Below are positions 3 through 27,920 of a stretch of 64,000 bases of DNA, one piece after another. Positions within the stretch are counted from its first letter, which is position 1. Each line of letters opens with the position of its first letter. The DNA lies in assembly GCA_900465685.1 (NCBI GenBank), contig UEGR01000007.1, positions 62,001-126,000 of the forward strand, written 5' to 3'. Below the pieces are notes generated by a model, which searched no databases, had not been told where the DNA came from, and saw only the letters and a program-made list of their open reading frames with translations. The position numbers were made by a program, and so were the translations under genes. The DNA comes from Hyphomicrobiales bacterium (GTDB lineage Bacteria > Pseudomonadota > Alphaproteobacteria > Rhizobiales > Rhizobiaceae).

Positions 3-467
3 CTGTTCTGCGATTGCGACTTCCTGTTTCTCGGCGATATTGCCGGATTGCAGGCCTATAACGACCCGTCAAAGGCGGTTTATTGCGTTCAGCACGACTA
101 TCAGCCGAAAGACAGCGTCAAGATGGACGGCAAGGTGCAGACGACCTATCCGCGCAAGAACTGGTCGTCCTGCATGTTGTTCAACTGCGAACATCCTTCG
201 ACGCGCCAGCTGACGCCGGAACTCGTCAACCGCGAAACGGGCGCTTTCCTGCATCGCATGCAATGGGCTGCTGATGATGAAATCGGCGCATTGCCGACCG
301 AGTATAACTGGCTTGAAGGCTGGAACGAAAAGCCGGAACACGGCCTGCCGAAAGTCGTGCATTACACGAGCGGCGGTCCATGGTTCAAGGACTGGCAGAA
401 TGTCGATTATGCCGATCTCTGGCGCGCCGAGGCCGACATTGTTGAACCGGGCTGGAAGCCGATCTGA
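3..467 (+). CDS. Glycosyltransferase, 3' part only
   Basis: The reading frame is open from the first bases of the window, so the true start lies upstream and only about the last 154 residues are present. The visible protein opens with LFCDCDFLFLGDI. That is a DCD motif in a hydrophobic strand, as in the metal/nucleotide-sugar (DXD) site of GT-A fold glycosyltransferases. It continues with YNWLEGWNE and VVHYTSGGPWF, a late His-containing segment that fits the second metal ligand of GT8-like enzymes. The next gene, 65 bp downstream, is a GT25 transferase in the same direction. The role is probably transfer of a sugar to a surface glycan. Substrate and exact family are not determinable. Confidence 0.65.
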   Translation: MFCDCDFLFLGDIAGLQAYNDPSKAVYCVQHDYQPKDSVKMDGKVQTTYPRKNWSSCMLFNCEHPSTRQLTPELVNRETGAFLHRMQWAADDEIGALPTEYNWLEGWNEKPEHGLPKVVHYTSGGPWFKDWQNVDYADLWRAEADIVEPGWKPI

Positions 468-532
468 TCGCCAGCCTTGATCGCGCGAAAAATCCTACAG
501 CTTTTTAACCGGCTCCACGCTACATAGATGCC

Positions 533-1369
533 ATGAACGAAACGCGTCATGAATCTCCAGCGCAAGGCGGATCACAACAACCTGCCGCGCAGCAAAAACC
601 AGACGGCCCGAAGAGGGCCGGTTCTGTGGCATTGGAAGACGGCCCAAAGAGGGCCGTCAAGGCTTTCATCATCCATCTGAAGCGGGCGAGTGATCGTCAG
701 CCGCAGGTGGCGCAGCTCATTGAAAGCCTGCCAATGCGGGCGGAAGTGATTGACGCCATTGACGGGCGCGTGCTCGATGAAGACACCATCCAGCGCGTCT
801 ATCGCCGCTCGGTGCACAAGCCGCACTACCCCTTCCCCCTCAGCACCAATGAGATTGCCTGCTTTCTGTCGCATCGCAAGGCATGGCAAGCCATTGTCGA
901 TCAGAAGATCGACGCTGGTTTCGTGCTGGAAGACGATGTCGAGCTGACGCCGGAATTTGCAGCGGCTTTTCAGGCTGCTCTGCAACTCGTTGACCATGAC
1001 AGTTTCATCCGTTTCCCCTTCCGCGAACGGGAAACGGGCCGGGAAGTGCTGAATATCGACGGCGTTCGTGTTATCCTGCCTGTACCGGTTGGCCTTGGCA
1101 TGGTTGCCCAGCTTGTCGGGCGGGAGGCTGCAAGACGGCTGCTGGCCGCGACCGAGACGTTTGACCGGCCGGTGGACACCACGGCGCAGATGAACTGGGT
1201 GACGGGGCTGAAGCCGCTTTCCGTCCTGCCCGGCGGCGTACGTGAAGTGTCAGTGCGATTAGGTGGCAGCACTATCCAGAAATCCCGTTCACTGCCTGAT
1301 AAGCTGAAGCGGGAAATCCTGCGTCCGCTTTATCGCTGGAAAATCAAATCCCGCTCTCTTAAAGGATAA
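533..1369 (+). CDS. Glycosyltransferase family 25 (LPS-type sugar transferase)
   Basis: A cytoplasmic glycosyltransferase of 278 residues. After a low-complexity N-terminal tail of about 40 residues comes the GT25 core: FIIHLKRASDR (45-55), FLSHRKAW (111-118) and the acidic VLEDDVEL (131-138). These are hallmarks of the LgtF/Lic2B family, which adds hexoses to lipooligosaccharide core or related glycans. The tail contains DGPKRA twice, 12 residues apart, reflecting a 36-base repeat in the DNA. Start is the ATG at 533; no strong ribosome binding site is visible. It sits among other glycan genes on the same strand. Family assignment is firm, acceptor unknown. Confidence 0.85.
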   Translation: MNETRHESPAQGGSQQPAAQQKPDGPKRAGSVALEDGPKRAVKAFIIHLKRASDRQPQVAQLIESLPMRAEVIDAIDGRVLDEDTIQRVYRRSVHKPHYPFPLSTNEIACFLSHRKAWQAIVDQKIDAGFVLEDDVELTPEFAAAFQAALQLVDHDSFIRFPFRERETGREVLNIDGVRVILPVPVGLGMVAQLVGREAARRLLAATETFDRPVDTTAQMNWVTGLKPLSVLPGGVREVSVRLGGSTIQKSRSLPDKLKREILRPLYRWKIKSRSLKG

Positions 1370-1459
1370 AGCGGTTTCCTTTGAAATAGAACTGCCCTAG
1401 CTATTTGTCTTGCGCATGTCGCGACCCGCGAAACCGCGCAGCTTTGCTGGAATATTCTC

Positions 1460-2173
1460 GTGAGGATTGCCTTGTCAGTTCCAATTCTTCTTTATCACCA
1501 GATTGATGTTCCGCCCCGGCACAAGGCGCCTTTTCGTAGCATGACCGTGCATCCCGACCGCTTTCGCAGCCAGATGGCCTGGCTGAAACGCCTCGGTTAC
1601 CAGGGATTGTCGTTCAAGGATGCACTGCCCTACATCTATGGCGGCAAAAAGGGCAAAGTCGCGGTCATCACCTTCGATGACGGCTTTGAAAATGTGTTCC
1701 GTAACGCACTGCCTGTCTTGCAGGAGCATGGCTTCACCGCCACGAATTATTTCGTCGCCAACCAGATCGGCGGCTTCAACCTCTGGGATCAGAAAATCGG
1801 CGTGGCGCGGGCCAATTGCATGAGCGCCACCGAAATGCGGGAATGGGCCGCGCTCGGTCACGAGGTGGGATCCCACACGCTCGACCATATCAATCTGCGT
1901 GAGGCCAGCGATGCAGAGGCGCAAGTGCAGATCCGGCAATCCCGCGAAAAGATCGAGGATTTGCTCGGGCAGGAAGTGATCTCCTTCGCCTATCCCTATG
2001 GCGGCGAGAATGACAGAACGCGCAAGATCGTCGAGCAGGCAGGCTATAAATATGCAACCACGACGGAAAGACGTCGCGCAAAACCAACAGACGATCCGTT
2101 CGGCATTCCGCGCCTGACGATCCGGCGTAACGATATATGGCTACAGTTCCTGCGGAAGTGCCTGCTGGGTTAG
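1460..2173 (+). CDS. Polysaccharide deacetylase (NodB/CE4 family)
   Basis: A 237-residue protein of the carbohydrate esterase 4 family, which removes N- or O-acetyl groups from polysaccharides using a divalent metal. The motifs are clear: TFDDGF (71-76) with the catalytic Asp and metal-binding Asp, SHTLDH with His139 and His143 as metal ligands, and FAYPYGG near 177-183 for motif 3. The chosen start is GTG at 1460, followed by a short hydrophobic stretch (IALSVPILLYHQID). This is the usual beginning of the catalytic domain, so a separate signal peptide is not obvious. It follows the GT25 gene on the same strand and probably modifies the same glycan. Confidence 0.87.
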   Translation: MRIALSVPILLYHQIDVPPRHKAPFRSMTVHPDRFRSQMAWLKRLGYQGLSFKDALPYIYGGKKGKVAVITFDDGFENVFRNALPVLQEHGFTATNYFVANQIGGFNLWDQKIGVARANCMSATEMREWAALGHEVGSHTLDHINLREASDAEAQVQIRQSREKIEDLLGQEVISFAYPYGGENDRTRKIVEQAGYKYATTTERRRAKPTDDPFGIPRLTIRRNDIWLQFLRKCLLG

Positions 2174-2251
2174 CTTTAGATATTCTTAGTCTGCGTTGGA
2201 CTCATAAAATGTGAGTCCGCCCTACTGATTCGTGCCCGATCTAACTGCGTA

Positions 2252-4189
2252 ATGTCTAACTTAGACAATCGGAATTTACAGAATCGCAGTGACAACAATT
2301 TAGGTAATTCACCGATGCAAATCGACCAAAGCATTATCAATAGATCTGGGAAACGGATTTACTTTGATCCCACCGATAAGCGCGGTGAACAACTTGCGGG
2401 TTCCGATGGGACATTGGCCCCGTATTCTTTGGCCCTTTGGAATGTCGCGTTGAAGCTGTGTCCGTGGGACTACGTGGTCGATGTCGGGTGCAATTATGGG
2501 GAGATGCTGGTTTCAGCTGATTTACCCGTTAAAGCAGAAATCGTTGCATTTGAACCGAACCCACGCATACTTCCTTATTTGAGGAAGACGCTATCGGAGA
2601 GTGGAACACCCGTCCGGCTGATCGAACGGGCTGTCGCCGAGGCTGTTAAGGAATCGACCATTTTTGTGGTCGATGAAGACTGGTCTGGAACTTCCGGTCT
2701 ACCGAAAGAGACAGACGAGACGGTTTTTGGTCATAATCATAGGCATTCCGATATTTCCGTCGCCGTAACTACGCTGGATCATGAATTTCTGGATATCCAG
2801 CCAACGAATATCTGCATCAAAATTGATGTCGAGGGCCACGAGTTTTCCGTGCTGGCAGGTGCAAAGAAGCTCTTCGAGCAAGCCGCAAATTGGGCAGTCG
2901 TACTCGAAATTCTACATATGCGCCCCACAGAAATATCGAAACTTGCAAAAGATTATTCACTCTATGTTCTGGAAAAGCATTCGGAGAAAATCGTCAAACT
3001 AGACGGTGCTAACCCCAGCCGCCTGGAACATCAAATTTCTGACCTTTCACTATATTTACAAGACGCTCTCCTGGTTAGTTCCGATACGATCATCAACGAT
3101 ACAGTACTGTTTCAGATGCCAGCCGATAACGGCGGACTCCAGACGCACAAACTTGGTCACCCAAATTCAACGGAGACGGCTCCGAGGCGTGTGGTGTACA
3201 CGGCACTCATTGGTGCGTATGAACTTCTCAACGAACAACCCGTAGCAGAGAGCAGCAAAATCGATTTCATCTGCTTCACAGATGACCCGGCTCTTGTCAG
3301 CGAAAGTTGGGAAATTCGGTTGATTGAACCAAGATTCCCGAGGGACACTATTCGCAGCGCTCGGTATCTGAAGGTTATGGGACCGGACATATTGGGCGAA
3401 TATGACGAGTCCTTATGGATCGACAATTCCATAGTTCTTCGCGCAACGCCTGAGTCTATTCTTGATGAGTGGCTCGCCGATGCGGATTTTACACTTCCGT
3501 TGCATGGTTATCGCGAGAGCGTCGCAGGCGAATTCGACGCCGTCGACGCCGCTGGCTACGACGATCCATCACGCATTTACGAACAGATGATCACCTATGC
3601 AGCAGTACGTCCTGCCGTACTGGAAGAAAAGCCATACGCGACCAATTTTATGGCGCGCCGACACACCGCCCACCTACGCGAAGCAATGCGCCTATGGTAC
3701 GAACAGATACTTCGCTATTCACGAAGGGACCAATTATCGCTCAACTATGCTCTTTCTGTTACTGGTCTCCCAGCGCACGGTATAGACATGGACCTGTTCC
3801 AAACGGACAAGCATCAGTGGCCCGTCAGTCGCGAACGCAAGACCAATGTGACACGGGGACAGTTGTCCAATGTCCTGAGAATTCCTCATGTTGAAATGGG
3901 GCGCCTTGAAAACACGGCGGCGGCTTTGCAAAATGCGCTTACGCAGGAAACCGCCTTGCGCAATGAGACCGAAAGCAAGGTGTTAAATCTGCAGGCGGCG
4001 CTTGCAGCAGCCCAAGGCGAGTTAAATTCGCTTAGATCCAGCTCGTCTTGGCGTGTCACTCAGCCCTTGCGCTGGGCTGGTTCACATCTCGCCGTTCACA
4101 ATCGCACTATAATAAAAAGAGGCGTTCGCGCGTTATGGCGAACAATCACGCTCGCCAGCGTCCGTAACCAAGGTGATCGCGATCATTGA
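2252..4189 (+). CDS. FkbM methyltransferase fused to a DUF616 (TOD1/MUCI70-like) glycosyltransferase domain
   Basis: A 645-residue protein with three parts. Residues about 50-260 are an FkbM-type SAM methyltransferase: VVDVGCNYG (75-83) is the SAM-binding loop, FEPNP the acidic loop, and IDVEGHEFSVLAGA the FkbM signature. Residues about 308-530 resemble DUF616: VVYTALIGAYE, FICFTDDP, and LWIDNSIVL. The C-terminus has an Ala/Leu/Glu-rich coiled coil (about 553-600) ending in SSSWRVTQPLRW, a tail often seen on large glycan-modifying proteins. Start ATG 2252 lacks a clear ribosome site; ATG 2315 is an alternative. The gene is visibly AT-richer than its neighbours, which suggests transfer. Likely methylates and glycosylates a surface glycan; the domain calls are from motifs only. 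Confidence 0.75.
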   Translation: MSNLDNRNLQNRSDNNLGNSPMQIDQSIINRSGKRIYFDPTDKRGEQLAGSDGTLAPYSLALWNVALKLCPWDYVVDVGCNYGEMLVSADLPVKAEIVAFEPNPRILPYLRKTLSESGTPVRLIERAVAEAVKESTIFVVDEDWSGTSGLPKETDETVFGHNHRHSDISVAVTTLDHEFLDIQPTNICIKIDVEGHEFSVLAGAKKLFEQAANWAVVLEILHMRPTEISKLAKDYSLYVLEKHSEKIVKLDGANPSRLEHQISDLSLYLQDALLVSSDTIINDTVLFQMPADNGGLQTHKLGHPNSTETAPRRVVYTALIGAYELLNEQPVAESSKIDFICFTDDPALVSESWEIRLIEPRFPRDTIRSARYLKVMGPDILGEYDESLWIDNSIVLRATPESILDEWLADADFTLPLHGYRESVAGEFDAVDAAGYDDPSRIYEQMITYAAVRPAVLEEKPYATNFMARRHTAHLREAMRLWYEQILRYSRRDQLSLNYALSVTGLPAHGIDMDLFQTDKHQWPVSRERKTNVTRGQLSNVLRIPHVEMGRLENTAAALQNALTQETALRNETESKVLNLQAALAAAQGELNSLRSSSSWRVTQPLRWAGSHLAVHNRTIIKRGVRALWRTITLASVRNQGDRDH

Positions 4190-4242
4190 ATTTAGATTCT
4201 GTCAAAGCGAAGCCAATCCCATGATCAAACTCAGATTAGCAA

Positions 4243-5328
4243 TCAAACCGAAGCTTTCATCGCAGTATGATTAGCTAACCGCTTCTGCAAATCCACCATA
4301 AAGCCGCGTTCGACCAGACATTCCGGTCCCGTATATTGAACGGAGCCGGAATAGACCAGCGACAGGTCGTCGGAAAACCGGCCGCTTCCGACGATAGCTT
4401 TGTAATGCTCCGATCCGCCTGCGTGGCTTCCTTCCGACGCAATCCGCTGGAACTCTTCAACCGAGCGCGACGAAAACCGGTAGTGCAGCAGCGCGCCGGT
4501 GACAGGCAAATAGTTGCGGAAGCAAGGGCCCGGCCCGTGAATACTGCCCCGGCGGTAATCGGTCTTATGGTCGACCCAGATCAACGGAAACTTGGACAGG
4601 CGCATGCTGCGTCCAAAAAGGCGCTGGCGCGGACCGCCGCGCACGGCGACGCCGAAGCGCTCTTGCTGCACCGTGTAACCATCGCCATCGAAATGTGACG
4701 ACACTTCAAACGGATATTGCGTTCCGTCATCAACAAATACGCCGTCGCGCAGCAGACCGGCGGGATACATGTCGATCATCGGCGCCAGACAGCGCCGGAT
4801 TCCGCTCGCTTCCAGTTCCTGAATGAAATCGCGCAGGCTGCGCTGTTCCATGCGTGGAAAGACGAAGAACTCGTCTGCATCCACCGAAAGATACCAGCGG
4901 CGGCGACCGTAAATATTGAATATCGCATCGCGCCAGGCGCGCCCGCGATTGGCCTCCGCATAGCGAACATCGGAAACGAACAGATCGACATCGGCGGCAT
5001 TGGCGAGAATCTCAGCCGTCCCGTCATCCGACTTGTCATCCACGACGATAAAACGTGTGACACCCAGCGCACGATAATAACGCAGGAACGAATTCAGATA
5101 AGCGGCGGCATTGCGCACCACGCAGATCAGCGGCAGATCGTCCGGCAGCAAAGCCGCGAAACTTCCAGACGACGCAATCAGATTGGCCTTGCTGCGTCTT
5201 TTGGGAACAGACAGCCGCGCATGACGCCAGCGCAACTTGAACTGCTGTGCCGACGAAGCGCGCCAATAGGCGGCCCAATCCAACTCGTTTGACGCTGGAT
5301 AGTGCATGGGCGGCAAAGCGGACTTCAT
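4243..5328 (-). CDS. Glycosyltransferase family 2-like protein
   Basis: A glycosyltransferase of about 361 residues with a GT-A fold (the Glyco_tranf_2_4 / GT92-like group). Seen in the sequence: LICVVRNAAAYLNSFLRYYRALGVTR, the usual start of this domain; VVDDKSDDGTAE, the nucleotide-binding loop; and WYLSVDADEFF with the DXD metal site. A histidine-containing segment LLHYRF lies near the C-terminus. The ATG at 5328 is chosen. A GTG six codons upstream (5346) is also open, and neither has a strong ribosome site. It converges on the FkbM fusion gene and is the last glycan gene before hemA. Donor and acceptor cannot be told. Confidence 0.8.
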   Translation of the reverse strand: MKSALPPMHYPASNELDWAAYWRASSAQQFKLRWRHARLSVPKRRSKANLIASSGSFAALLPDDLPLICVVRNAAAYLNSFLRYYRALGVTRFIVVDDKSDDGTAEILANAADVDLFVSDVRYAEANRGRAWRDAIFNIYGRRRWYLSVDADEFFVFPRMEQRSLRDFIQELEASGIRRCLAPMIDMYPAGLLRDGVFVDDGTQYPFEVSSHFDGDGYTVQQERFGVAVRGGPRQRLFGRSMRLSKFPLIWVDHKTDYRRGSIHGPGPCFRNYLPVTGALLHYRFSSRSVEEFQRIASEGSHAGGSEHYKAIVGSGRFSDDLSLVYSGSVQYTGPECLVERGFMVDLQKRLANHTAMKASV

Positions 5329-5691
5329 AAGTGGGTTGTCTTTCACGGGGAACTAATCAGCGACATATTGGTGTTTTTTGCTGGCAAATCTATGCCCGCA
5401 CGAATCACGCTGTGTTATGTCGCGACAAGAATGCGTGAACACTGATATCTGCCAGCCCCGCGCTTTTGGCTGCATTTGCTTGATCTCGATCAATGCTGCT
5501 TCAATAAAACGTGGCAAATTGCCCGCAACCGCGCCATGGACGACAAAGGCCAAAAGCGCTAGTTAAGGCAAAGACAAGCGCATCGGCCTAAAAATCGGGA
5601 GCGATTTTTCGGAAACACGGTGCGTCGAATCAAATAGTTAGAGCGAGTTTTGTGCGTCCGGAAGGACGCGCGGCCCTCTAAGGAGCGCATG
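5329..5691. other. Intergenic region between the GT2 gene and hemA
   Basis: This divergent spacer of about 360 bases carries the control region of hemA. It contains a near-perfect FNR/FixK-type palindrome (5480-5493) and a strong ribosome site just before hemA. No other gene is supported in it. Confidence 0.7.
5480..5493. promoter_or_regulatory. FNR/FixK-type binding site upstream of hemA
   Basis: TTGATCTCGATCAA is an exact TTGAT-N4-ATCAA palindrome, the consensus bound by FNR/FixK/FnrN regulators. It lies about 200 bases before the hemA start. Oxygen-responsive control of hemA by such regulators is known in other alphaproteobacteria; here it is inferred from the site alone. Confidence 0.7.
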
Positions 5692-6969
5692 ATGGATTAT
5701 CGCCGGTTTTTCGAAGAAGCGATTGATCAGTTGCACGCCGAGAAGCGTTACCGCGTTTTCGCCGATCTTGAACGCATCGTCGGACGTTTCCCCCGCGCGA
5801 TCTGGCGAAACAACGGCACGGCCCGTGAAATCACCGTCTGGTGTTCCAACGATTATCTCGGCATGGGTCACCATCCCGACGTGATCAAGGCCATGTGCGA
5901 CACCGCAAGCAATGCCGGTTCCGGCGCTGGCGGCACGCGCAACATTTCCGGCAACAACCATCCGCTGGTTGAGCTGGAAGCCGAGCTGGCCGATCTGCAC
6001 GGCAAGGAAGCCGGTCTGGTTTTCACCTCCGGTTTCATTTCCAACGAAGCCTCGATCTCGACCATTGCGCGCCTGTTGCCAAACTGCCTGATCCTGTCCG
6101 ACGAGCTGAACCATGCCTCGATGATCGAAGGCGTGCGCCGCTCGGGCGCAGAGAAGAAGATTTTCCGTCACAACGACGTCGAGCATCTGGAACAGCTTTT
6201 GAAGGCCGCCGATCCGGCGCGCGCCAAGCTGATCGTGTTCGAATCCGTCTATTCGATGGATGGCGATATTGCGCCAATCGAAAAGATTGCCGATCTGGCC
6301 GACAAATATAATGCCATGACCTATATCGATGAAGTTCATGCCGTCGGCATGTACGGCACGCGCGGCGGCGGCATCACCGACCGTGATGGTCTGGCGCACC
6401 GCATCGACATTATCGAAGGTACGCTTGCCAAGGCTTTCGGTGCGCTTGGCGGCTATATCACCGGCTCACGCGCCATTATCGACGCTGTTCGCTCCTATGC
6501 GCCGGGCTTCATCTTCACGACCGCCCTGCCGCCATCGGTAGCAGCGGCTGCAACGGCTTCGATCCGCCATCTCAAGGCATCACAAGTCGAGCGCGATGGT
6601 CAGCAGCGTCAGGCGCAGCAGGCCAAGGACGTGCTTTCGGCAGCGGACCTGCCCGTCATGCCTTCAGACACGCATATCGTGCCCGTGCTGGTCGGCGATC
6701 CCGAGCTTTGCAAGAAGGCCAGCGATCGGCTGCTCGATGTGCATGGCATCTATATCCAGCCAATCAACTATCCGACCGTGCCACGCGGCACCGAACGCCT
6801 GCGCATCACGCCGTCGCCGCTGCATGACGATGCGCTGATCGACGGGTTGAAGGATGCGTTGCTGGAAGTCTGGAACGCGCTTGGCATTCCCTTTGCCGAA
6901 AACGATGCCCCGCAGGCAGCCAGTTCTGAGCGCGTTGTGCCGCTGATGGTTTCCAAGGCGGGCGGCTAA
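5692..6969 (+). CDS. hemA: 5-aminolevulinate synthase
   Basis: Condenses glycine with succinyl-CoA to 5-aminolevulinate, the first step of haem synthesis by the Shemin (C4) route typical of alphaproteobacteria; PLP-dependent and cytoplasmic. The N-terminus [20 protein letters not shown] is characteristic of the family. [10 protein letters not shown], the VYSMDGD and [12 protein letters not shown] segments and the Schiff-base lysine K247 in EGTLAKAFG are all present. The length (425 residues) is normal. Two ATGs sit in tandem at 5689 and 5692; the second is better spaced (6 bases) from TAAGGAG at 5679-5685. An FNR-type box lies upstream, and a bidirectional terminator follows. Confidence 0.96.
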
Positions 6970-6989
6970 GCGCTTCGCAAAGTGCTGAA

Positions 6990-7022
6990 TGAAAAAAGGC
7001 CGGTTTTCACCGGCCTTTTTTC
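6990..7022. terminator. Bidirectional intrinsic terminator
   Basis: The stem GGCCGG/CCGGCC with loop TTTTCA is flanked by A and T runs on its two sides, so it can end both hemA (plus) and the convergent aminotransferase gene (minus). Confidence 0.85.
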
Positions 7023-7024
7023 AA

Positions 7025-8191
7025 TTAAAGCTGCTCGATCCATTTTACGAGCCGCGCTGCGGCCTCGTCGATCTGATGCGGCGCACGACCGAAGCAAAGG
7101 CGGAAGAATGCCTCTCCGCCTTGTCCGAAGGCGCTGCCGGGTGCGAGGCCCACATTGGCCCGGTCGATCATATCGATGGCCGCCTTGACGGAATCAGTCA
7201 CGCCTTCAACGCCGAAGAACAGATAAAATGCGCCTTGCGGCGGCGTGAGGCGCACCTTGCCGGTTGCCTGCAAGGCCGAACACAGCCTGTCGCGGGTGGC
7301 GCGGGCGCGCTCCACCTGCATGGCAATAAACGGTTCGCCCTGATCGAGCGCCGCCACTGCACCGCGCTGCATGAACGGCGCCACGCCGGAATTGGAATAC
7401 TGGATCATGTTTTCGATCACAGGACCGACGGAAGGATGCACGGTCATCCAACCCACGCGCCAGCCCGTCATGGCCCAATTCTTCGAGAAGGAATTGACGA
7501 AGATGATGCGGTCGTCGGGCTCCATGATTTCCATGAAGGACGGGGCATGGCCGCCGCCATAATAGAAATGCGTATAGATCTCGTCGGCGATGATCCAGAG
7601 CCCGTGCTTGCGCGCGAGATCGAGGATAAAACGCAGTGTCTCGCGATCAGCCGTCCATCCGGTCGGGTTGGACGGCGTATTGATGAACAGCGCGCGCGTG
7701 CGCGGCGTGATGGCGGCAGCGATTTTCTCCGGGTCGAGCACCCAGCCATTCGCGCCGAATTCCAGTTCGACCGCAACGGGCACTGCACCTGCGAGACCGG
7801 CTGCGCCGACGAAATTCGGCCAGGCCGGGGACAGATAGATCGCTTCCTCGCCCGCACCGACTGTCGCCGTCAGCGCCATTTCGATGGCATGCATGCCGGA
7901 ACCGGTGACATAGAAATTCTCCGGCTTCAGGGGCAGCGGGAAGTGACGCGCATGATAACGGGCCAGCGCCTCGCGCAGTTCGGGAATACCGGCCTGCCAG
8001 GTATAGAAGGTCTCGCCGTCGGTGATGCTCTTCTGTGCCGCATCGCGAATGAAATCTGGTGTCGGCAGATCGCCCTCGCCGACCCACAACGGAATAAGAC
8101 CCTCGCGGCCTCGGCCATGATTGGCAACGGCGACAATGCCGCTTTCTGGCGCTTGCGCTGCTTCGCGGCGGAGACTGGCTAAAAGTGTCAT
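7025..8191 (-). CDS. PLP-dependent aminotransferase, class I/II
   Basis: A 388-residue fold-type I aminotransferase. Visible motifs are PLWVGEGDLPTPDFI near the N-terminus (substrate-gating region of aspartate-aminotransferase-like enzymes), INTPSNPTGW (the conserved Asn-Pro-Thr-Gly segment), IADEIYTHF (Asp pairing with the PLP nitrogen), and SFSKNWAMTGWRVGW with the Schiff-base lysine. The FYTWQAGIPELREAL segment is typical of the subgroup that uses aspartate, aromatic or related amino acids. Start ATG 8191 has AGGAT just upstream. The gene stands alone between hemA (convergent) and mscL. Exact substrate cannot be fixed from sequence. Confidence 0.88.
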   Translation of the reverse strand: MTLLASLRREAAQAPESGIVAVANHGRGREGLIPLWVGEGDLPTPDFIRDAAQKSITDGETFYTWQAGIPELREALARYHARHFPLPLKPENFYVTGSGMHAIEMALTATVGAGEEAIYLSPAWPNFVGAAGLAGAVPVAVELEFGANGWVLDPEKIAAAITPRTRALFINTPSNPTGWTADRETLRFILDLARKHGLWIIADEIYTHFYYGGGHAPSFMEIMEPDDRIIFVNSFSKNWAMTGWRVGWMTVHPSVGPVIENMIQYSNSGVAPFMQRGAVAALDQGEPFIAMQVERARATRDRLCSALQATGKVRLTPPQGAFYLFFGVEGVTDSVKAAIDMIDRANVGLAPGSAFGQGGEAFFRLCFGRAPHQIDEAAARLVKWIEQL

Positions 8192-21719: not shown

Positions 21720-21920
21720 CGACCTCGTACTCCATAGTCTGAGCAATTCTTCAAAAGACCTTTGACCACTCAAAGGCCCGATGCCAACCCTTCGCGCCCG
21801 GAGAAACGGGGTTTTCCGCAGGAATCGAACTCAATTGCAAACCAACGAGGCAGGCTTTTCCGCGAATCTGGTTCTTCTAGCATTGACGACCTTGCACAAC
21901 AGGCATAAGGAAAATGTGTT

Positions 21921-21976
21921 CCGTGGTGATTTGGCCGGCCGGCTTGCAGCCACGTTAAAGAATTCGCTAAAAAGGG
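21921..21976 (+). promoter_or_regulatory. SAM-II riboswitch
   Basis: The segments CCGTGGTGATTTGGCCG, GCTTGCAGCCACGTTAAAG and CGCTAAAAAGGG occur in order and spacing as in the alphaproteobacterial SAM-II consensus. Stem P1 pairs CGTGG (21922-21926) with CCACG (21950-21954); the AAAAAGGG end forms the pseudoknot strand. SAM binding is expected to shut off metZ. An intrinsic terminator begins 13 bases later, so control may act on transcription. Confidence 0.92.
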
Positions 21977-21988
21977 CCGCGGTTCGTT

Positions 21989-22016
21989 ACCGGCCTTTTG
22001 GGCCGGTTTTTTATTG
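21989..22016 (+). terminator. Intrinsic terminator in the metZ leader
   Basis: The stem ACCGGCC/GGCCGGT with loop TTTTG, followed by TTTTT. It lies between the SAM-II aptamer and the metZ start, and is thus the probable expression platform or attenuator. Confidence 0.8.
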
Positions 22017-22081: not shown

Positions 22082-23278
22082 ATGACGACTGAGACTACCC
22101 GCAAGTTCCGCCCCGCGACACAGCTCGTGCATGCCGGTTCGCTCCGCTCCGGTTTCGCCGAAATGTCGGAAGCGATGTTCCTCACGCAGGGTTTCCTCTA
22201 CCCCGATGCCGAAGCCGCCGAAGCGCGCTTCAAGGGCGAAAATCCGGGTTTCATCTATTCGCGTTATGCCAACCCCACCACGGACATGTTCGAAAAGCGC
22301 ATGTGCGCACTGGAAGGCGCCGAGGAAGGCCGTGCCACGGCTTCCGGCATGGCTGCTGTCGCCGCCGCCATTCTGTGTCAGGTGCAGGCGGGTGATCATG
22401 TGATTTCCGCGCGCGCCGTATTCGGCTCGTGTCGTTATATCGTCGAGACCCTGCTGCCGCGCTATGGCGTGGAAATCTCGATCGTCGACGGCTCGGATAT
22501 CGCAAACTGGAAAGCCGCCGTTCGCCCGAACACCAAGGTGATGTTCCTCGAAAGCCCGTCGAACCCGACGCTCGAAATCATCGACATCGCCGCCGTGGCC
22601 CAGGTGGCCAATGAAGCCGGTGCGAAGCTCATCGTCGACAATGTCTTCGCGACCCCGCTTTACCAGAAGCCGCTGGAGCTTGGCGCGCATATCGTCGTCT
22701 ATTCGACCACCAAGCATATTGACGGTCAGGGCCGCTGCCTTGGCGGCATCGTGCTGTCGGACCGCGAATGGGTCGAGAACACGCTTCAGGACTATTATCG
22801 CCACACCGGTCCCGGTATGAGCCCGTTCAATGCATGGATCATGCTGAAGGGTCTGGAAACGCTGTCCGTGCGCGTGCGCCAGATGACGCAGTCGGCGGCT
22901 GCCGTTGCCGATGTTCTCGCAGGCAAGCCGGGCGTCAAGCGCGTCATCTATCCGGGCCGCGCCGACCATCCGCAGGCGGATATCATCGCCAAGCAGATGA
23001 CCGGCGGTTCGACCCTGATTGCGCTGGAACTGGAAGGCGGCAAGGAAGCCGCGTTCAAGTTCGAAAATGCGCTGCAGGTGTTCAGCATCTCCAACAATCT
23101 GGGTGACGCCAAGAGCCTGATCACCCATCCGGCCACCACGACGCACAAGAACCTCAGCGATGAGGCCAAGGCCGAGCTGGGCATTTCCGATGGCGTGCTG
23201 CGCATTTCGGTCGGCCTTGAAGATACCGACGATCTCATGGAAGACGTCGAAGAAGCGCTGAAGGCAGCGGTTCGCTAA
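22082..23278 (+). CDS. metZ: O-succinylhomoserine sulfhydrylase
   Basis: PLP enzyme of the Cys/Met metabolism family (398 residues) that converts O-succinylhomoserine and sulfide to homocysteine, the direct sulfhydrylation route to methionine. Visible motifs are FIYSRYANPTTDMFEKRM (PLP phosphate and substrate contacts), ATASGMAAVAAA, FLESPSNPTLEI, and LIVDNVFATP. The Schiff-base Lys211 lies in YSTTKHIDGQGRCLGG, and the C-terminal segment IRISVGLED-like LRISVGLEDTDDL is present. The family resemblance to MetB/MetC is strong, but GQGR and the SAM-II riboswitch upstream favour MetZ. Confidence 0.94.
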   Translation: MTTETTRKFRPATQLVHAGSLRSGFAEMSEAMFLTQGFLYPDAEAAEARFKGENPGFIYSRYANPTTDMFEKRMCALEGAEEGRATASGMAAVAAAILCQVQAGDHVISARAVFGSCRYIVETLLPRYGVEISIVDGSDIANWKAAVRPNTKVMFLESPSNPTLEIIDIAAVAQVANEAGAKLIVDNVFATPLYQKPLELGAHIVVYSTTKHIDGQGRCLGGIVLSDREWVENTLQDYYRHTGPGMSPFNAWIMLKGLETLSVRVRQMTQSAAAVADVLAGKPGVKRVIYPGRADHPQADIIAKQMTGGSTLIALELEGGKEAAFKFENALQVFSISNNLGDAKSLITHPATTTHKNLSDEAKAELGISDGVLRISVGLEDTDDLMEDVEEALKAAVR

Positions 23279-24027: not shown

Positions 24028-25062
24028 TTACTTCGCAAACAGCGCGGGATCGAACTCGTAGCTCGTTGAGCAGAATTCGCAGGTCACCGAAACCTTGCCG
24101 TTCTCGATGCTGTCCTGAATTTCCTCGGCGGTGAAACCAGCGAGAACACCCTGGATTTTCTCACGCGAGCAGGAGCATTCATCCACCACCTTGATGGCGT
24201 TGAAAACGCGCACGCCGCGTTCATGGAACAGGCGATAGAGCAGCCGCTCAGAGCCAATCGTCGGATCGGTCAGTTCCGAGCTTTCGATGGTTCCAACCAG
24301 CGACCGCGCCTCATCCCAGGCGTCATCCACCGGATGATGCACGGCTTCATTGTCGTCGCCGTCCCCGCCCGGCAGATCGGGAATGCGCGCGCGCAGTTCC
24401 GATTCCGGCAGGAACTGGATGATCAGTCCGCCAGCGCGCCATTGTTCGACGAGCTTGCCATCGGCACCCCGTTCGACCAGCTTGGCGACGCTGAGCTTCA
24501 GATCGGTCGGGATCTGTTCCGACTGGCGGAAATAAGTCGTCGCGATTTCTTCCAGCGTCGAGCCGTCAAGCGCCACGATGCCCTGATAGCGCTGCATATA
24601 GGCGCCCTGATCCACCGTGAAGGCCAGCGTGCCGCGACCGAGCAGCTCTTCCGGCTCTGTCTTGCCAGCGGCAATGGCGTCTTTCAGACGCTCATCATCA
24701 AAACGCGCATAGGCGCGCACAGCATGCGGCGTGCTGAAATCCACCACCAGCATGTCCACCGGACCGTCGGACTGGGTCTGGAAGATGAACTTGCCTTCGA
24801 ATTTGAGCGAAGTGCCGAGCAAAACGGTCAGAACCGTCGCCTCAGCCAGCAGGCGGGCCACTTCCTCGGGATATTTATGCCGTTTCAGAATGGCGTCGAT
24901 GCTCGTGCCAAGCTGAACCGCGCGACCGCGCACATCAAGCCCTTCCACCTGGAAGGGCACGACCGCATTGTCGCCTGCAAAGCCGAAATCACCCAGATCG
25001 AGCTTGGGACCCGACTGGCCGTTTTCGGCTTCGATATGAATGTTGCTGGTATCCTCAGCCAC
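24028..25062 (-). CDS. hslO: 33 kDa redox-regulated chaperonin Hsp33
   Basis: Cytoplasmic holdase chaperone switched on by oxidative unfolding. About 344 residues. The N-terminal domain has VPFQVEGLDVRGRAVQLGTS and ARLLAEATVLTVLLG. The C-terminal zinc switch has all four cysteines, in DECSCSREKI and in VTCEFCSTSYEF, so the redox sensor is intact. Start GTG 25062 is preferred because GGAG lies six bases upstream; a TTG at 25074 is the alternative. It is the last gene of the argD-argF-hslO operon, beginning 12 bases after argF. Terminated by the shared apaG/hslO hairpin. Confidence 0.94.
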   Translation of the reverse strand: MAEDTSNIHIEAENGQSGPKLDLGDFGFAGDNAVVPFQVEGLDVRGRAVQLGTSIDAILKRHKYPEEVARLLAEATVLTVLLGTSLKFEGKFIFQTQSDGPVDMLVVDFSTPHAVRAYARFDDERLKDAIAAGKTEPEELLGRGTLAFTVDQGAYMQRYQGIVALDGSTLEEIATTYFRQSEQIPTDLKLSVAKLVERGADGKLVEQWRAGGLIIQFLPESELRARIPDLPGGDGDDNEAVHHPVDDAWDEARSLVGTIESSELTDPTIGSERLLYRLFHERGVRVFNAIKVVDECSCSREKIQGVLAGFTAEEIQDSIENGKVSVTCEFCSTSYEFDPALFAK

Positions 25063-25074
25063 AGAAAACTCCAA

Positions 25075-26001
25075 TCACGCGCCTTGCAGGCACCAGGCCA
25101 GAATGGCCTTCTGGGCGTGGAGCCTGTTTTCGGCTTCGTCGAACACGACCGATTGCGGCCCGTCGATCACTTCGTTGGTCACTTCCTCCCCGCGATGCGC
25201 AGGCAGGCAATGCATGAAGAGCGCCTTCGGATCAGCTTGCGCCATCAGCCTCGCATTGACCTGATAGGGCATGAACACATTGTGTCCACGGGCGCGGTCT
25301 TCCTGTCCCATCGAAACCCAGGTGTCGGTCACGATGCAATCCACACCGCTTGCCGCTTTCTCCGGGTCTGTCGTGGACATGATGTCCGCACCGTGCGCCC
25401 TGGCCCAGTCAATAAAGTGCTGGTTTGGCTCGCTGCCTTCCGGCGTCGCGATATTGACGTTGAAGTCAAACCGCGCCGCGGCTTCCACAAGCGAATGCAG
25501 GACGTTGTTGCCGTCCCCCATCCAGGCAAAGGTTTTGCCTTTGATCGAGCCGCGATGTTCCTCATATGTAAGAACGTCGGCCATGATCTGACAAGGGTGG
25601 GTGTCGTCGGTCAATGCATTAATGACCGGAACGGTCGCATATTCGGCCAGTTCCAGCATGCGGTCATGCGATGTGGTGCGGATCATGATCGCATCCACAT
25701 AGCGCGACAGGACCTTCGCCGTATCGGCGATGGTCTCGCTGCGGCCGAGCTGCATTTCCGAGCCCGTGAGCATCAGCGTTTCACCGCCGAGCTGGCGCAT
25801 GCCGACATCGAACGACACGCGGGTGCGTGTCGACGGCTTTTCGAAAATCATCGCCAGCACCTTGCCGGCAAATGGCTTTTCAATCTCGCCCGCCTTCAGG
25901 CGCGCCTTGCGCACCTTTGCATCCTCAAGGATGGAGCGCAATTCGCTTCCCGGGACGGAAGACAGATCGAGGAAGTGCTTGATACCGTTATCCTGAGCCA
26001 T
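25075..26001 (-). CDS. argF: Ornithine carbamoyltransferase
   Basis: Carbamoylates ornithine to citrulline in arginine synthesis. The protein is 308 residues and complete. Visible motifs are [15 protein letters not shown] (carbamoyl phosphate loop STRTR), [16 protein letters not shown] (HPCQ), and [26 protein letters not shown] is the SMG ornithine loop, and [19 protein letters not shown] is HCLPA. It begins 2 bases after argD and is followed at once by hslO, so all three are cotranscribed. This order is conserved in related alphaproteobacteria to my knowledge. Confidence 0.97.
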
Positions 26002-26003
26002 GA

Positions 26004-27215
26004 TTACGCCGTCTTGCTGATCGGATTTGCGACGGAAAGCCGTTCCACGGCCATTTCGATGCGGTTCAGCGCCTCACGGGCTTCTTCCGGCGTCGTGACC
26101 AGCGGCGGCAGCAGACGGACGACATTGTCGCCAGCGCCAACGCTCAGGAAATGCTCGTCACGCAGCGCCTGAATGAGCGTGGTGTTCGGAACAACGCACT
26201 TGATGCCCATCAGAAGACCGCGACCGCGAACTTCGGAAACCACATTCGGGAACCGGTCGATGATCGAGGCAAGGCCCTGCTTCATGACAAGCGCGGTGGC
26301 CTGAACATTTTCCAGGAAACCGTCAGACAGCACGACGTCCAGCACGGCATTGCCGACAGCCATGGCAAGCGGATTGCCGCCATAGGTCGTGCCATGCACA
26401 CCGGCAACCATGCCCTTGGCGGCTTCAGCCGTCGCAAGGCAGGCGCCAACCGGGAAACCGCCGCCAATACCCTTGGCCACAGCCATGATGTCCGGCGTGA
26501 CGCCTGACCATTCATGGGCAAACAGCTTGCCGGTACGGCCAACGCCGGTCTGGACTTCGTCGAGGATCAAAAGCAGGCCCTTGTCGTCACAGATCTGACG
26601 GATAAGGCGCATGAATTCTTCCGGGAAACCACGCAGACCGCCCTCGCCCTGCACGGGCTCAAGCAGAATACCGGCGGTTTCATCGGTAATAGCAGCGCGC
26701 AAGGCAGCCTCGTCGCCGAACGGCACCTGATCGAAGCCTTCGACCTTCGGGCCGAAACCTTCGAGATACTTGGCCTGACCACCGGCAGCGATGGTCGCAA
26801 GCGTGCGGCCATGGAACGCGCCTTCAAAGGTGATGATCCGGAAACGCTCCGGATGGCCGTTCGCGAAATGATAGCGACGCGCGGTCTTGATCGCGCATTC
26901 AAGCGCTTCCGCGCCGGAATTGGTGAAGAAAACCTTGTCGGCAAATGTGTTGTCGACCAGACGCTGGCCGAGCTTTTCCTGTCCGGGAACTTCATAAAGA
27001 TTGGACAGATGCCACAGCTTTTCAGCCTGATTTTTCAAGGCTTCGACCAGATGTGGATGCGAATGGCCAAGGGAGTTCACCGCGATGCCAGCCGCAAAAT
27101 CGAGATAGCGCTCGCCGGTTTCGGTGATCAGCCAGATGCCCTCACCTCGCTCGAAGCGCAGAGCCGCACGATTATAGGTGTCGTAAAGCGGTTGCACGGT
27201 CGTAGCGTCGGTCAT
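26004..27215 (-). CDS. argD: Acetylornithine aminotransferase
   Basis: Class III PLP aminotransferase (403 residues) converting N-acetylglutamate semialdehyde to N-acetylornithine; it may also act on succinyldiaminopimelate. Motifs are [20 protein letters not shown] at the start, [18 protein letters not shown], and [33 protein letters not shown] binds PLP. The catalytic lysine is in [15 protein letters not shown], and [11 protein letters not shown] follows. ATG 27215 has GGAGG nine bases upstream. It is first in the argD-argF-hslO operon. The leader carries a good promoter and an intrinsic terminator (27375-27400), which suggests attenuation. Confidence 0.96.
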
Positions 27216-27322
27216 TGCAATCAGGCCTCCATAAGCCCTTCTAAATGCTGCATATCCGAGGAAAACGGACTGTCAGCCTTTGCCATTTTGAGCGATAACG
27301 CGACCCTCTCTCCGGCCGGTCA

Positions 27323-27412
27323 TCACAGGATTGCAGCAGGTGGATCATGCGCCTCGCGCGTGAAAAGCCTGCCGAAATAAAAAGCCGCCCACCGGGCGGC
27401 ACAATTATTCAT
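27323..27412 (-). CDS. Possible leaderless leader peptide of argD (29 residues)
   Basis: A short frame on the minus strand starts ATG AAT AAT TGT GCC and ends TGA 107 bases before argD. Its ATG coincides with the transcription start predicted from the promoter at 27418-27446, so it would be translated leaderless. Codons 5-10 run through the stem of the terminator at 27375-27400. Arginine codons are at positions 7 (CGG), 15 (AGG) and 19 (CGC). This geometry would let a ribosome at the 5' end block terminator folding. It is a prediction; there is no homology support, and random occurrence of a frame this short is possible. Confidence 0.35.
   Translation of the reverse strand: MNNCAARWAAFYFGRLFTREAHDPPAAIL
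27375..27400 (-). terminator. Intrinsic terminator or attenuator in the argD leader
   Basis: Read on the minus strand: GCCGCCC, loop GGT, GGGCGGC, then TTTTTATTT. No minus-strand gene lies upstream of it, since gcrA diverges, so it can only act on the argD leader transcript or on a tiny RNA starting near 27412. Confidence 0.8.
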
Positions 27413-27920
27413 GGGCGTATATTGGCGCTCGCGAAAAAAATGTCAATCAAACTAAGCCCGGATTGTCGCTCATCTTTGCGCATGAGTTCATGCATTTTAT
27501 GTCCGCACGTCTGAGCTTTGCCTAAGCTTTGCCCAAGCCTTGCATGATGGGCATATCAGACTTTCCGCAACAATTCGGCAAGCGGGGTAGCGCGACCGTC
27601 GCACGCCCTATATATAGTGCCCAGTTTCCACGACAGGGTTCGTGCGGCGGCTTCTCTCTCCCAGGTGTTCAAAAATGCACCACAGGACCAAAGAAAAACC
27701 GTCTTTGCCACCCAAGTTGGGGAAAACCCTAAAAATGGAATCTGCCTGACAGGGCTATCCCTTGTCATGGAGTCATCCGGTAATGTAGTTTCTCTTTAAA
27801 GAAAAAAGCTACATTTCGTGCGGCGGACCTAGTCACCCGGATAGATATGGTGTTTGCGCCTGGAGCAATCCGGGAACACTGGTGGATTCCGGATAACGAA
27901 AATGATTGGAGCCCAGGGCG
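27413..27920. other. Intergenic region upstream of gcrA
   Basis: About 500 bases between the argD promoter and gcrA. It holds a GAGTC site at 27770-27774 and a GATTC site at 27885-27889 (both GANTC, the CcrM target), a TATATATA stretch near 27608, and a short direct repeat of GCTTTGCC(T/C)AAGC near 27515-27540. No convincing gene is visible on either strand. Confidence 0.55.
27418..27446 (-). promoter_or_regulatory. Predicted promoter of the argD leader
   Basis: On the minus strand a perfect TTGACA (27446-27441) is followed by a 17-base spacer and AATATA (27423-27418), a good sigma-70-type promoter. The expected start point is at 27411-27412. Confidence 0.6.

What the first reader, a model, noticed from the sequence alone, without database searches (positions are those of the whole stretch)
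27323..27446. Leaderless leader peptide over a terminator in front of argD: a possible new arginine attenuator
On the minus strand a textbook TTGACA-17-AATATA promoter predicts a transcript starting at 27411-27412, exactly on the ATG of a 29-codon frame. Codons 5-10 of this frame form a GC-rich stem followed by TTTTTATTT, a strong intrinsic terminator placed inside the leader of the argD-argF-hslO operon. A ribosome on the leaderless start would cover the first arm of the stem and could prevent termination. Arg codons CGG, AGG and CGC at positions 7, 15 and 19 might sense charged arginine tRNA. Leaderless leader peptides with attenuation are known for trp in rhizobia; I know of none described for argD. 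The promoter-ATG coincidence and the terminator position are seen; the mechanism is inference.
Basis: partly seen in the sequence, partly recalled or inferred. Interest (0 to 1): 0.7.

Follow-up and report, generated by a model that had tools for sequence, protein, structure and literature searches.

The report
Conserved terminator hairpin before argD
The predicted mRNA of the arginine gene argD begins with a stop-signal-like hairpin that recurs in most sampled members of its bacterial order, but the tiny peptide proposed to control it is not conserved, so the hairpin, and not the peptide, is probably the working part.

Summary
The leader peptide fails: the ATG at the predicted +1 is in 3 of 35 genomes of the genus (Brucella/Ochrobactrum), the window and two near-identical ones. 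Promoter and terminator are conserved in the genus; most of the stretch between terminator and argD is not. In 148 argD upstream regions from about 50 families of the order, a TTGAC promoter followed at once by a GC hairpin with a T-rich tail is found in 105; shuffles give 0 of 296, the opposite strand 1 of 148. A covariance model of promoter plus hairpin hits only argD at E<=0.05 in 14 of 18 genomes, 150 candidates scored in each. The hairpin starts a few bases after the predicted 5' end, leaving no room for a leader ORF or upstream antiterminator. Best reading: a promoter-proximal terminator or pause limiting entry into argD-argF-hslO, without leader peptide, regulator unknown. No Rfam family matches. 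A 2008 table lists a predicted, undetected S. meliloti sRNA, sm14, ending at a terminator in the corresponding interval. Regulation is inferred, not shown.

The parts
27441..27446 (-). -35 element TTGACA
   Evidence: read; TTGAC present in 35 of 35 genus loci, TTGACT in one and TTGACA in the rest
27418..27423 (-). -10 element AATATA (or CAATAT at 27424-27419)
   Evidence: CCAATATA present in 35 of 35 genus loci
27410..27412 (-). ATG at the predicted transcription start; probably fortuitous
   Evidence: 3 of 35 genus genomes
27323..27412 (-). 29-codon candidate leader frame MNNCAARWAAFYFGRLFTREAHDPPAAIL; not conserved
27384..27400 (-). terminator stem-loop GCCGCCC-GGT-GGGCGGC
   Evidence: genus (with 12 chosen loci) and order
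27374..27383 (-). two-part U tract TTTTTATTTC
   Evidence: second T run 95% and 93% T at its first two positions in 61 other-family representatives
27216..27411 (-). predicted argD leader (5' UTR); most of the stretch after the terminator is poorly conserved
   Evidence: split matches
26004..27215 (-). argD, acetylornithine aminotransferase-like, 403 aa
   Evidence: matches at E<=1e-120 in 116 of 121 genomes of the order sample, the window's own included; name by recognition, no family scan run
25075..26001 (-). argF, ornithine carbamoyltransferase-like
   Evidence: recognised from the translation; no family scan run
24028..25074 (-). hslO, Hsp33-like
   Evidence: recognised from the translation; no family scan run
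27480..27493 (-). palindrome GCATGAACTCATGC upstream of the promoter, possible operator
   Evidence: recurs with changes in most genus loci by eye; pattern GCATGANNTCATGC at 2 places in the window's genome

Best explanation
The argD-argF-hslO operon starts at a sigma70-type promoter whose transcript runs almost at once into an intrinsic-terminator-like hairpin with a two-part U tract. In the window RNA polymerase would stop after about 35-40 nt on a share of the transcripts and read through on the rest to make the operon mRNA: a promoter-proximal attenuator or pause site without a leader peptide or riboswitch. Shown: the sequence features, their conservation, and their association with argD. 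Inferred: the transcription start, that termination or pausing happens, and that its extent is regulated, most likely by an elongation factor or RNA-binding protein acting on the hairpin and U tract.
For: Promoter plus terminator-like hairpin in 105 of 148 order-wide argD upstream regions, 0 of 296 shuffles, 1 of 148 opposite strands. In 464 kb of the window's genome (186 terminators, 213 promoter-like sites, both strands) only 2 such pairs exist: argD, and one antisense inside a coding frame. A covariance model hits only argD at E<=0.05 in 14 of 18 genomes (150 candidates scored per genome), 4 of the 14 (G054, G045, G051, G039) not in its training alignment; it finds 20 of the 43 leaders missed by the strict scan at E<=0.05. 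Genus hairpins score like the genome's own strong terminators (recalled d'Aubenton-type score, median 53 against 48). In 38 of 74 other-family leaders, 25 of 49 with a called ATG start, the stem ends under 60 nt from the argD start, so argD transcription must pass through it. Nine of 29 leaders from elsewhere in the class, most with other stem sequences, show the same order of parts within 25 nt; shuffles 0 of 290.
Against: No transcript, termination or regulation data. Outside the genus the hairpins score weaker (median 33); only 34 of 69 representatives have 5 or more T in the first 6 tail bases, and a few tails are hardly terminators (such as TGTCGTTTGGGG). 43 of 148 regions fail the strict scan, and some (L181, L183, L184, L188, L190, L191) show no hairpin by eye. 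Elsewhere in the class 19 of 29 fail it and the model finds only 3 of 29 at E<=0.05. The stem sequence and the second U run are more conserved than a plain terminator needs, so the function may not be termination.
Confidence: 0.5

Rival explanations
1. The hairpin is a 5'-terminal stabiliser of the argD mRNA (like the ompA 5' stem-loop, recalled) that blocks 5'-end-dependent decay; the U tract is secondary.
For: The stem lies a median of 13 nt after the -10 in other families, so only a few unpaired 5' bases; stems are strong, and only 34 of 69 representatives have a strong first U run.
Against: A stabiliser needs no U tract, yet the second T run is 95% and 93% T at its first two positions, and several stems in other alphaproteobacterial orders differ in sequence but keep a U tract.
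Confidence: 0.2
2. An RNA-binding protein recognises the hairpin (GCCGCC/GGCGGC) plus UUUnnUUU and controls translation or read-through of argD, as suggested for the serC element.
For: 50 of 69 argD representatives carry GCCGCC and GGCGGC in the stem against 7 of 80 strong terminators of the window's genome; two-part tail in 50 of 69 against 24 of 80. In some genomes the tail abuts the argD ribosome-binding region (such as L165).
Against: Related sequences are not independent, and paired bases are slow to change. In the genus the stem starts 105-332 nt before the start codon in the 31 scored loci, awkward for translational control.
Confidence: 0.15
3. The promoter and terminator form a stand-alone short RNA gene that acts in trans.
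For: S. meliloti sm14 was predicted as an sRNA in the interval beside gcrA, in the direction of the downstream gene, with a terminator (PMC2573895).
Against: A separate argD promoter hardly fits where the hairpin is next to the start codon (38 of 74 under 60 nt). The sequence between -10 and stem is not conserved across families. sm14 has no microarray detection in that table.
Confidence: 0.08
4. Leaderless leader peptide attenuation sensing charged arginine tRNA.
For: ATG at the predicted start, Arg codons at 7, 15 and 19, stem over codons 5-10 in the window. trpL of S. meliloti is a leaderless attenuator ORF (PMC10117765 and PMC7298713, passages). Arg-Arg frames with ATG start in 16 of 105 leaders exceed all 20 shuffle rounds (5-15).
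Against: ATG at the predicted start in 3 of 35 genus genomes; frames not conserved; the window's Arg codons are single and scattered; too little RNA before the stem for an antiterminator; the Arg-Arg excess vanishes with all start codons (24 against 23.75).
Confidence: 0.04

Closest known systems
trp attenuator trpL/rnTrpL of Sinorhizobium meliloti (passages of PMC10117765 and PMC7298713)
   Same: Leader terminator of an amino-acid biosynthesis gene in the same order; releases a short RNA; leaderless start, as in the window's version only
   Different: trpL has consecutive Trp codons and alternative antiterminator folding; the argD leader has neither a conserved frame nor room for an antiterminator
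serC element RF00517 (PMC1273637, passages)
   Same: Short hairpin element placed directly after near-consensus promoters before an amino-acid gene in alphaproteobacteria; signal unknown
   Different: serC has two stems and is thought to hide the ribosome-binding site; the argD element is one stem with a U tract; no Rfam match here
S. meliloti predicted sRNA sm14 (PMC2573895, Table 2)
   Same: Lies in the 410-nt interval beside SMc02139, which PMC3667746 gives as gcrA; same direction as the downstream gene; ends at a predicted terminator. That this gene is argD follows from PMC3616915 (gcrA divergent from argD)
   Different: Predicted as a 210-nt independent RNA from NN/PhoB promoter calls; no detection reported in the table; argD is not named in that paper's main text. 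That its terminator is this hairpin was not checked on S. meliloti sequence
Simple intrinsic terminators of the same genome
   Same: GC stem plus U tract with similar scores in the genus
   Different: The argD one sits a few bases after the predicted start of its own transcript and recurs there across the order

Membership tests
Ribosome-mediated attenuator with leader peptide | Conserved short ORF in the leader | tested here: not met
   ATG at the predicted start in 3 of 35 genus genomes; no shared frame
Ribosome-mediated attenuator with leader peptide | Run of codons for the end product (Arg) | tested here: not met
   In the window three single Arg codons, none adjacent. Elsewhere inconclusive: Arg-Arg frames with ATG in 16 of 105 leaders against 5-15 in shuffles, but 24 against 23.75 with all starts
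Ribosome-mediated attenuator with leader peptide | Alternative antiterminator fold | tested here: not met
   Stem begins a median of 13 nt (other families) or 18 nt (genus) after the -10, so little RNA precedes it; the minimum-energy fold of the window's leader keeps the terminator
Intrinsic terminator | GC-rich stem followed by a U tract | tested here: met
   Window and genus. Across the order mixed: 34 of 69 representatives have 5 or more T in the first 6 tail bases
Intrinsic terminator | RNA 3' ends at the U tract in vivo or in vitro | not testable with these tools
   no RNA data at hand
Transcription attenuator (any kind) | Read-through changes with a signal | not testable with these tools
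   needs RNA measurement under different arginine supply
Known Rfam RNA family (including serC) | Covariance-model match | tested here: not met
   Window at gathering threshold: only SAM_alpha elsewhere; 14 relatives at E<=1: two mir-328 matches far under that family's threshold

The most novel reading that the evidence does not exclude
An order-wide, perhaps class-wide, arginine-pathway control device made of only a promoter, a hairpin within the first bases of the RNA and a two-part U tract, read by an elongation factor or unknown RNA-binding protein rather than by a ribosome or ligand, in bacteria where ArgR is reported absent.
Probability: 0.2. Interest if true: 0.7.

Novelty: new variant of a known kind. 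Interest (0 to 1): 0.45.

Why it matters
How alphaproteobacteria control arginine synthesis is, to my knowledge, poorly known: a regulon survey reports ArgR conserved in gammaproteobacteria and absent in other classes (PMC5343134, passages). A leader element tied to argD and kept across much of the order gives that question a concrete test object. If termination so close to the start is regulated, it is a minimal attenuator without the usual sensors.

Tried and rejected
Rejected: the leader peptide; a known riboswitch or RNA family; a general terminator-after-promoter habit of the genome (464 kb of about 5.1 Mb); the palindrome as the operator of a regulon (2 places in the genome with the exact pattern, the other inside a ruvC-like frame). 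Not settled: an Arg-Arg upstream frame elsewhere in the leader (16 of 105 with ATG against 5-15 in 20 shuffle rounds; 24 against 23.75 with all starts).

Weak points: the strict scan requires TTGAC, so conservation of the -35 across families is partly built in. Start codons of argD were called by script and some are doubtful (TTG, GTG or none found), so distances to argD are approximate. The covariation comes from rows chosen for having a stem, so I do not count it as independent evidence. One search compared whole argD segments (51 of 69) with generic stems; one search repeats it on stems alone (50 of 69 against 7 of 80) and is the one used. One search read 40 bases into argD and so had 76 other-family rows where searches have 74. 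The order sample of 148 dropped 9 of 157 loci: L003 and L004, near-identical to the window, and seven whose last 200 bases exactly repeated another row. My regular expression hit a wrong copy in L024; one search corrects it. Of the ten class-level positives within 60 nt (9 within 25 nt), L199 runs into the argD start and L200 is far from its promoter, so both are doubtful. One search matched 43 of 67 genomes, the window's included; loci of 29 others were read. 68 of 69 representatives went into and 55 of 69 into the model alignment.

Full report
What is there. On the minus strand TTGACA (27446-27441), 17 bases and AATATA (27423-27418) stand before an ATG at 27412, and the frame from it has 29 codons. 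A 7-pair G-C stem (27400-27384) with TTTTTATTTC after it lies inside that frame. argD (26004-27215), argF and hslO follow, and gcrA is divergent (names recognised from the translations, no family scan run). The window is close to Brucella (Ochrobactrum) haematophila: G016 is 99% identical over the region, and its contig length equals that of a record with this name.

Genus test. In 35 genus loci (window plus 34) the promoter block TTGAC...CCAATATA is present in 35, and a hairpin with a U tract follows it in 35, with a longer loop in L034. The search with promoter to argD gives split matches in 19 of the 34 relatives: the promoter-terminator block and the coding region match, much of the stretch between them does not; its length varies, and only its last part, near argD, is partly alike. 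The ATG at the predicted start is present only in the window and the near-identical L003 and L004; L026 and L034 have an ATG closer to the -10 in another frame. So selection seems to have kept the promoter and the hairpin, not the peptide.

Order test. I took argD upstream regions from 148 genomes (32 of the genus after removing near-duplicates, 116 others; about 50 family labels). A strict scan (TTGAC, spacing 16-19, at least 3 of 6 in the -10; stem with at least 5 G-C pairs; T-rich tail; stem within 60 nt of the -10) is positive in 105 of 148, in 0 of 296 dinucleotide shuffles and in 1 of 148 opposite strands; by group 31 of 32 and 74 of 116. Of the 43 negatives, none of which trained the covariance model, the model finds 20 at E<=0.05, some by the hairpin part only. 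Some show no hairpin by eye (L181, L183, L184, L188, L190, L191). Elsewhere in the class the strict scan is positive in 10 of 29 (9 within 25 nt; shuffles 0 of 290, opposite strand 0 of 29), two of them doubtful, and the model finds 3 of 29 at E<=0.05.

Specificity. In 464 kb of the window's genome only two promoter-terminator pairs within 35 nt exist; the other is antisense inside a coding frame. The model of promoter plus hairpin, run on 18 genomes with 150 of 350-7556 first-look candidates scored in each, gives 14 hits with E<=0.0403, one per genome, and all 14 loci carry argD next to the hit. The best other hit has E=0.067. Four of the 18 had no hit at that level: G103, whose argD leader has a different stem by eye, and G113, G123 and G145, which also lacked an argD match. 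Of the 14, G054, G045, G051 and G039 were not in the training alignment; most of the others were.

Anatomy and what it excludes. The stem starts a median of 13 nt (other families) or 18 nt (genus) after the -10; with a start about 7 nt after the -10, usually only a few to about a dozen unpaired bases precede it. That leaves no room for an ORF with a control region, an aptamer or an antiterminator upstream. In 38 of 74 other-family leaders (25 of 49 with a called ATG start) the stem ends less than 60 nt from the argD start, so a second promoter downstream is unlikely there and argD transcription has to pass the hairpin.

Terminator or something else. By a recalled terminator score the genus hairpins equal the genome's own strong terminators (median 53 against 48); those of other families are weaker but mostly positive (median 33, 5th percentile 2.7). 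Only 34 of 69 representatives have 5 or more T in the first 6 tail bases, which speaks against strong termination in many families. Two features go beyond a plain terminator: GCCGCC/GGCGGC in the stem of 50 of 69 representatives against 7 of 80 strong terminators of the window's genome, and a two-part tail in 50 of 69 against 24 of 80. The second T run is 95% and 93% T at its first two positions in 61 other-family representatives, while strong terminators of the window's genome show 0.68, 0.56 and 0.42 T at tail positions 8-10 (the two sets are aligned differently and come from different genomes, so this is indicative only). Relatedness can explain part of this.

Literature. Paper searches brought up no description of an argD attenuator in alphaproteobacteria in their listings; that says nothing about papers outside the held library. 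Closest is sm14, a predicted sRNA in the S. meliloti interval beside SMc02139, with a terminator and no microarray detection in the table (PMC2573895, section 11 and passages). The S. meliloti start-site paper notes that gcrA is divergent from argD (PMC3616915, passages); its supplementary tables could not be opened here. ArgR is reported absent in classes other than gamma (PMC5343134, passages). The trpL attenuator (PMC10117765, PMC7298713, passages) and the serC element (PMC1273637, passages) are the best comparisons.

Verdict. A real leader hairpin at argD, conserved across much of the order; the proposed peptide mechanism is very unlikely; the likely mechanism is leaky promoter-proximal termination or pausing without a ribosome sensor. 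Whether arginine regulates it is open.

Noticed in passing
window 21913-21992 (+): SAM_alpha (SAM-II) riboswitch, 80.9 bits, ahead of a 398-aa frame at 22082-23278 that looks like an O-succinylhomoserine sulfhydrylase; a known kind.
   Followed up: no
window 27480-27493 (-): Palindrome GCATGAACTCATGC about 33 bases upstream of the -35, recurring with changes in most genus loci by eye; the only other exact site in the window's genome lies inside a ruvC-like frame (L076).
   Followed up: partly
window about 27770-27830 (+): Upstream of gcrA a GANTC site (27770-27774) lies in a stretch whose like is seen in other families (CCGCCGCACGA...CTACAATAT...GACTC), suggesting methylation-linked control of gcrA.
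   Followed up: no
window about 27717-27726 (-): TTTTCCCCAA motif in the gcrA-argD interval recurs in several other families; function unknown.
   Followed up: no
L195-L218, just upstream of argD: Outside the order a number of argD promoters share a -10 and following stretch like GATACT-CCGCGCTTTCC, with or without a hairpin.
   Followed up: no
L260 about 1500-1580: A weak model hit (E=0.28) in genome G104: a TTGAC promoter and hairpin ahead of a frame that looks like ribosomal protein L13 (rplM); may be chance.
   Followed up: no
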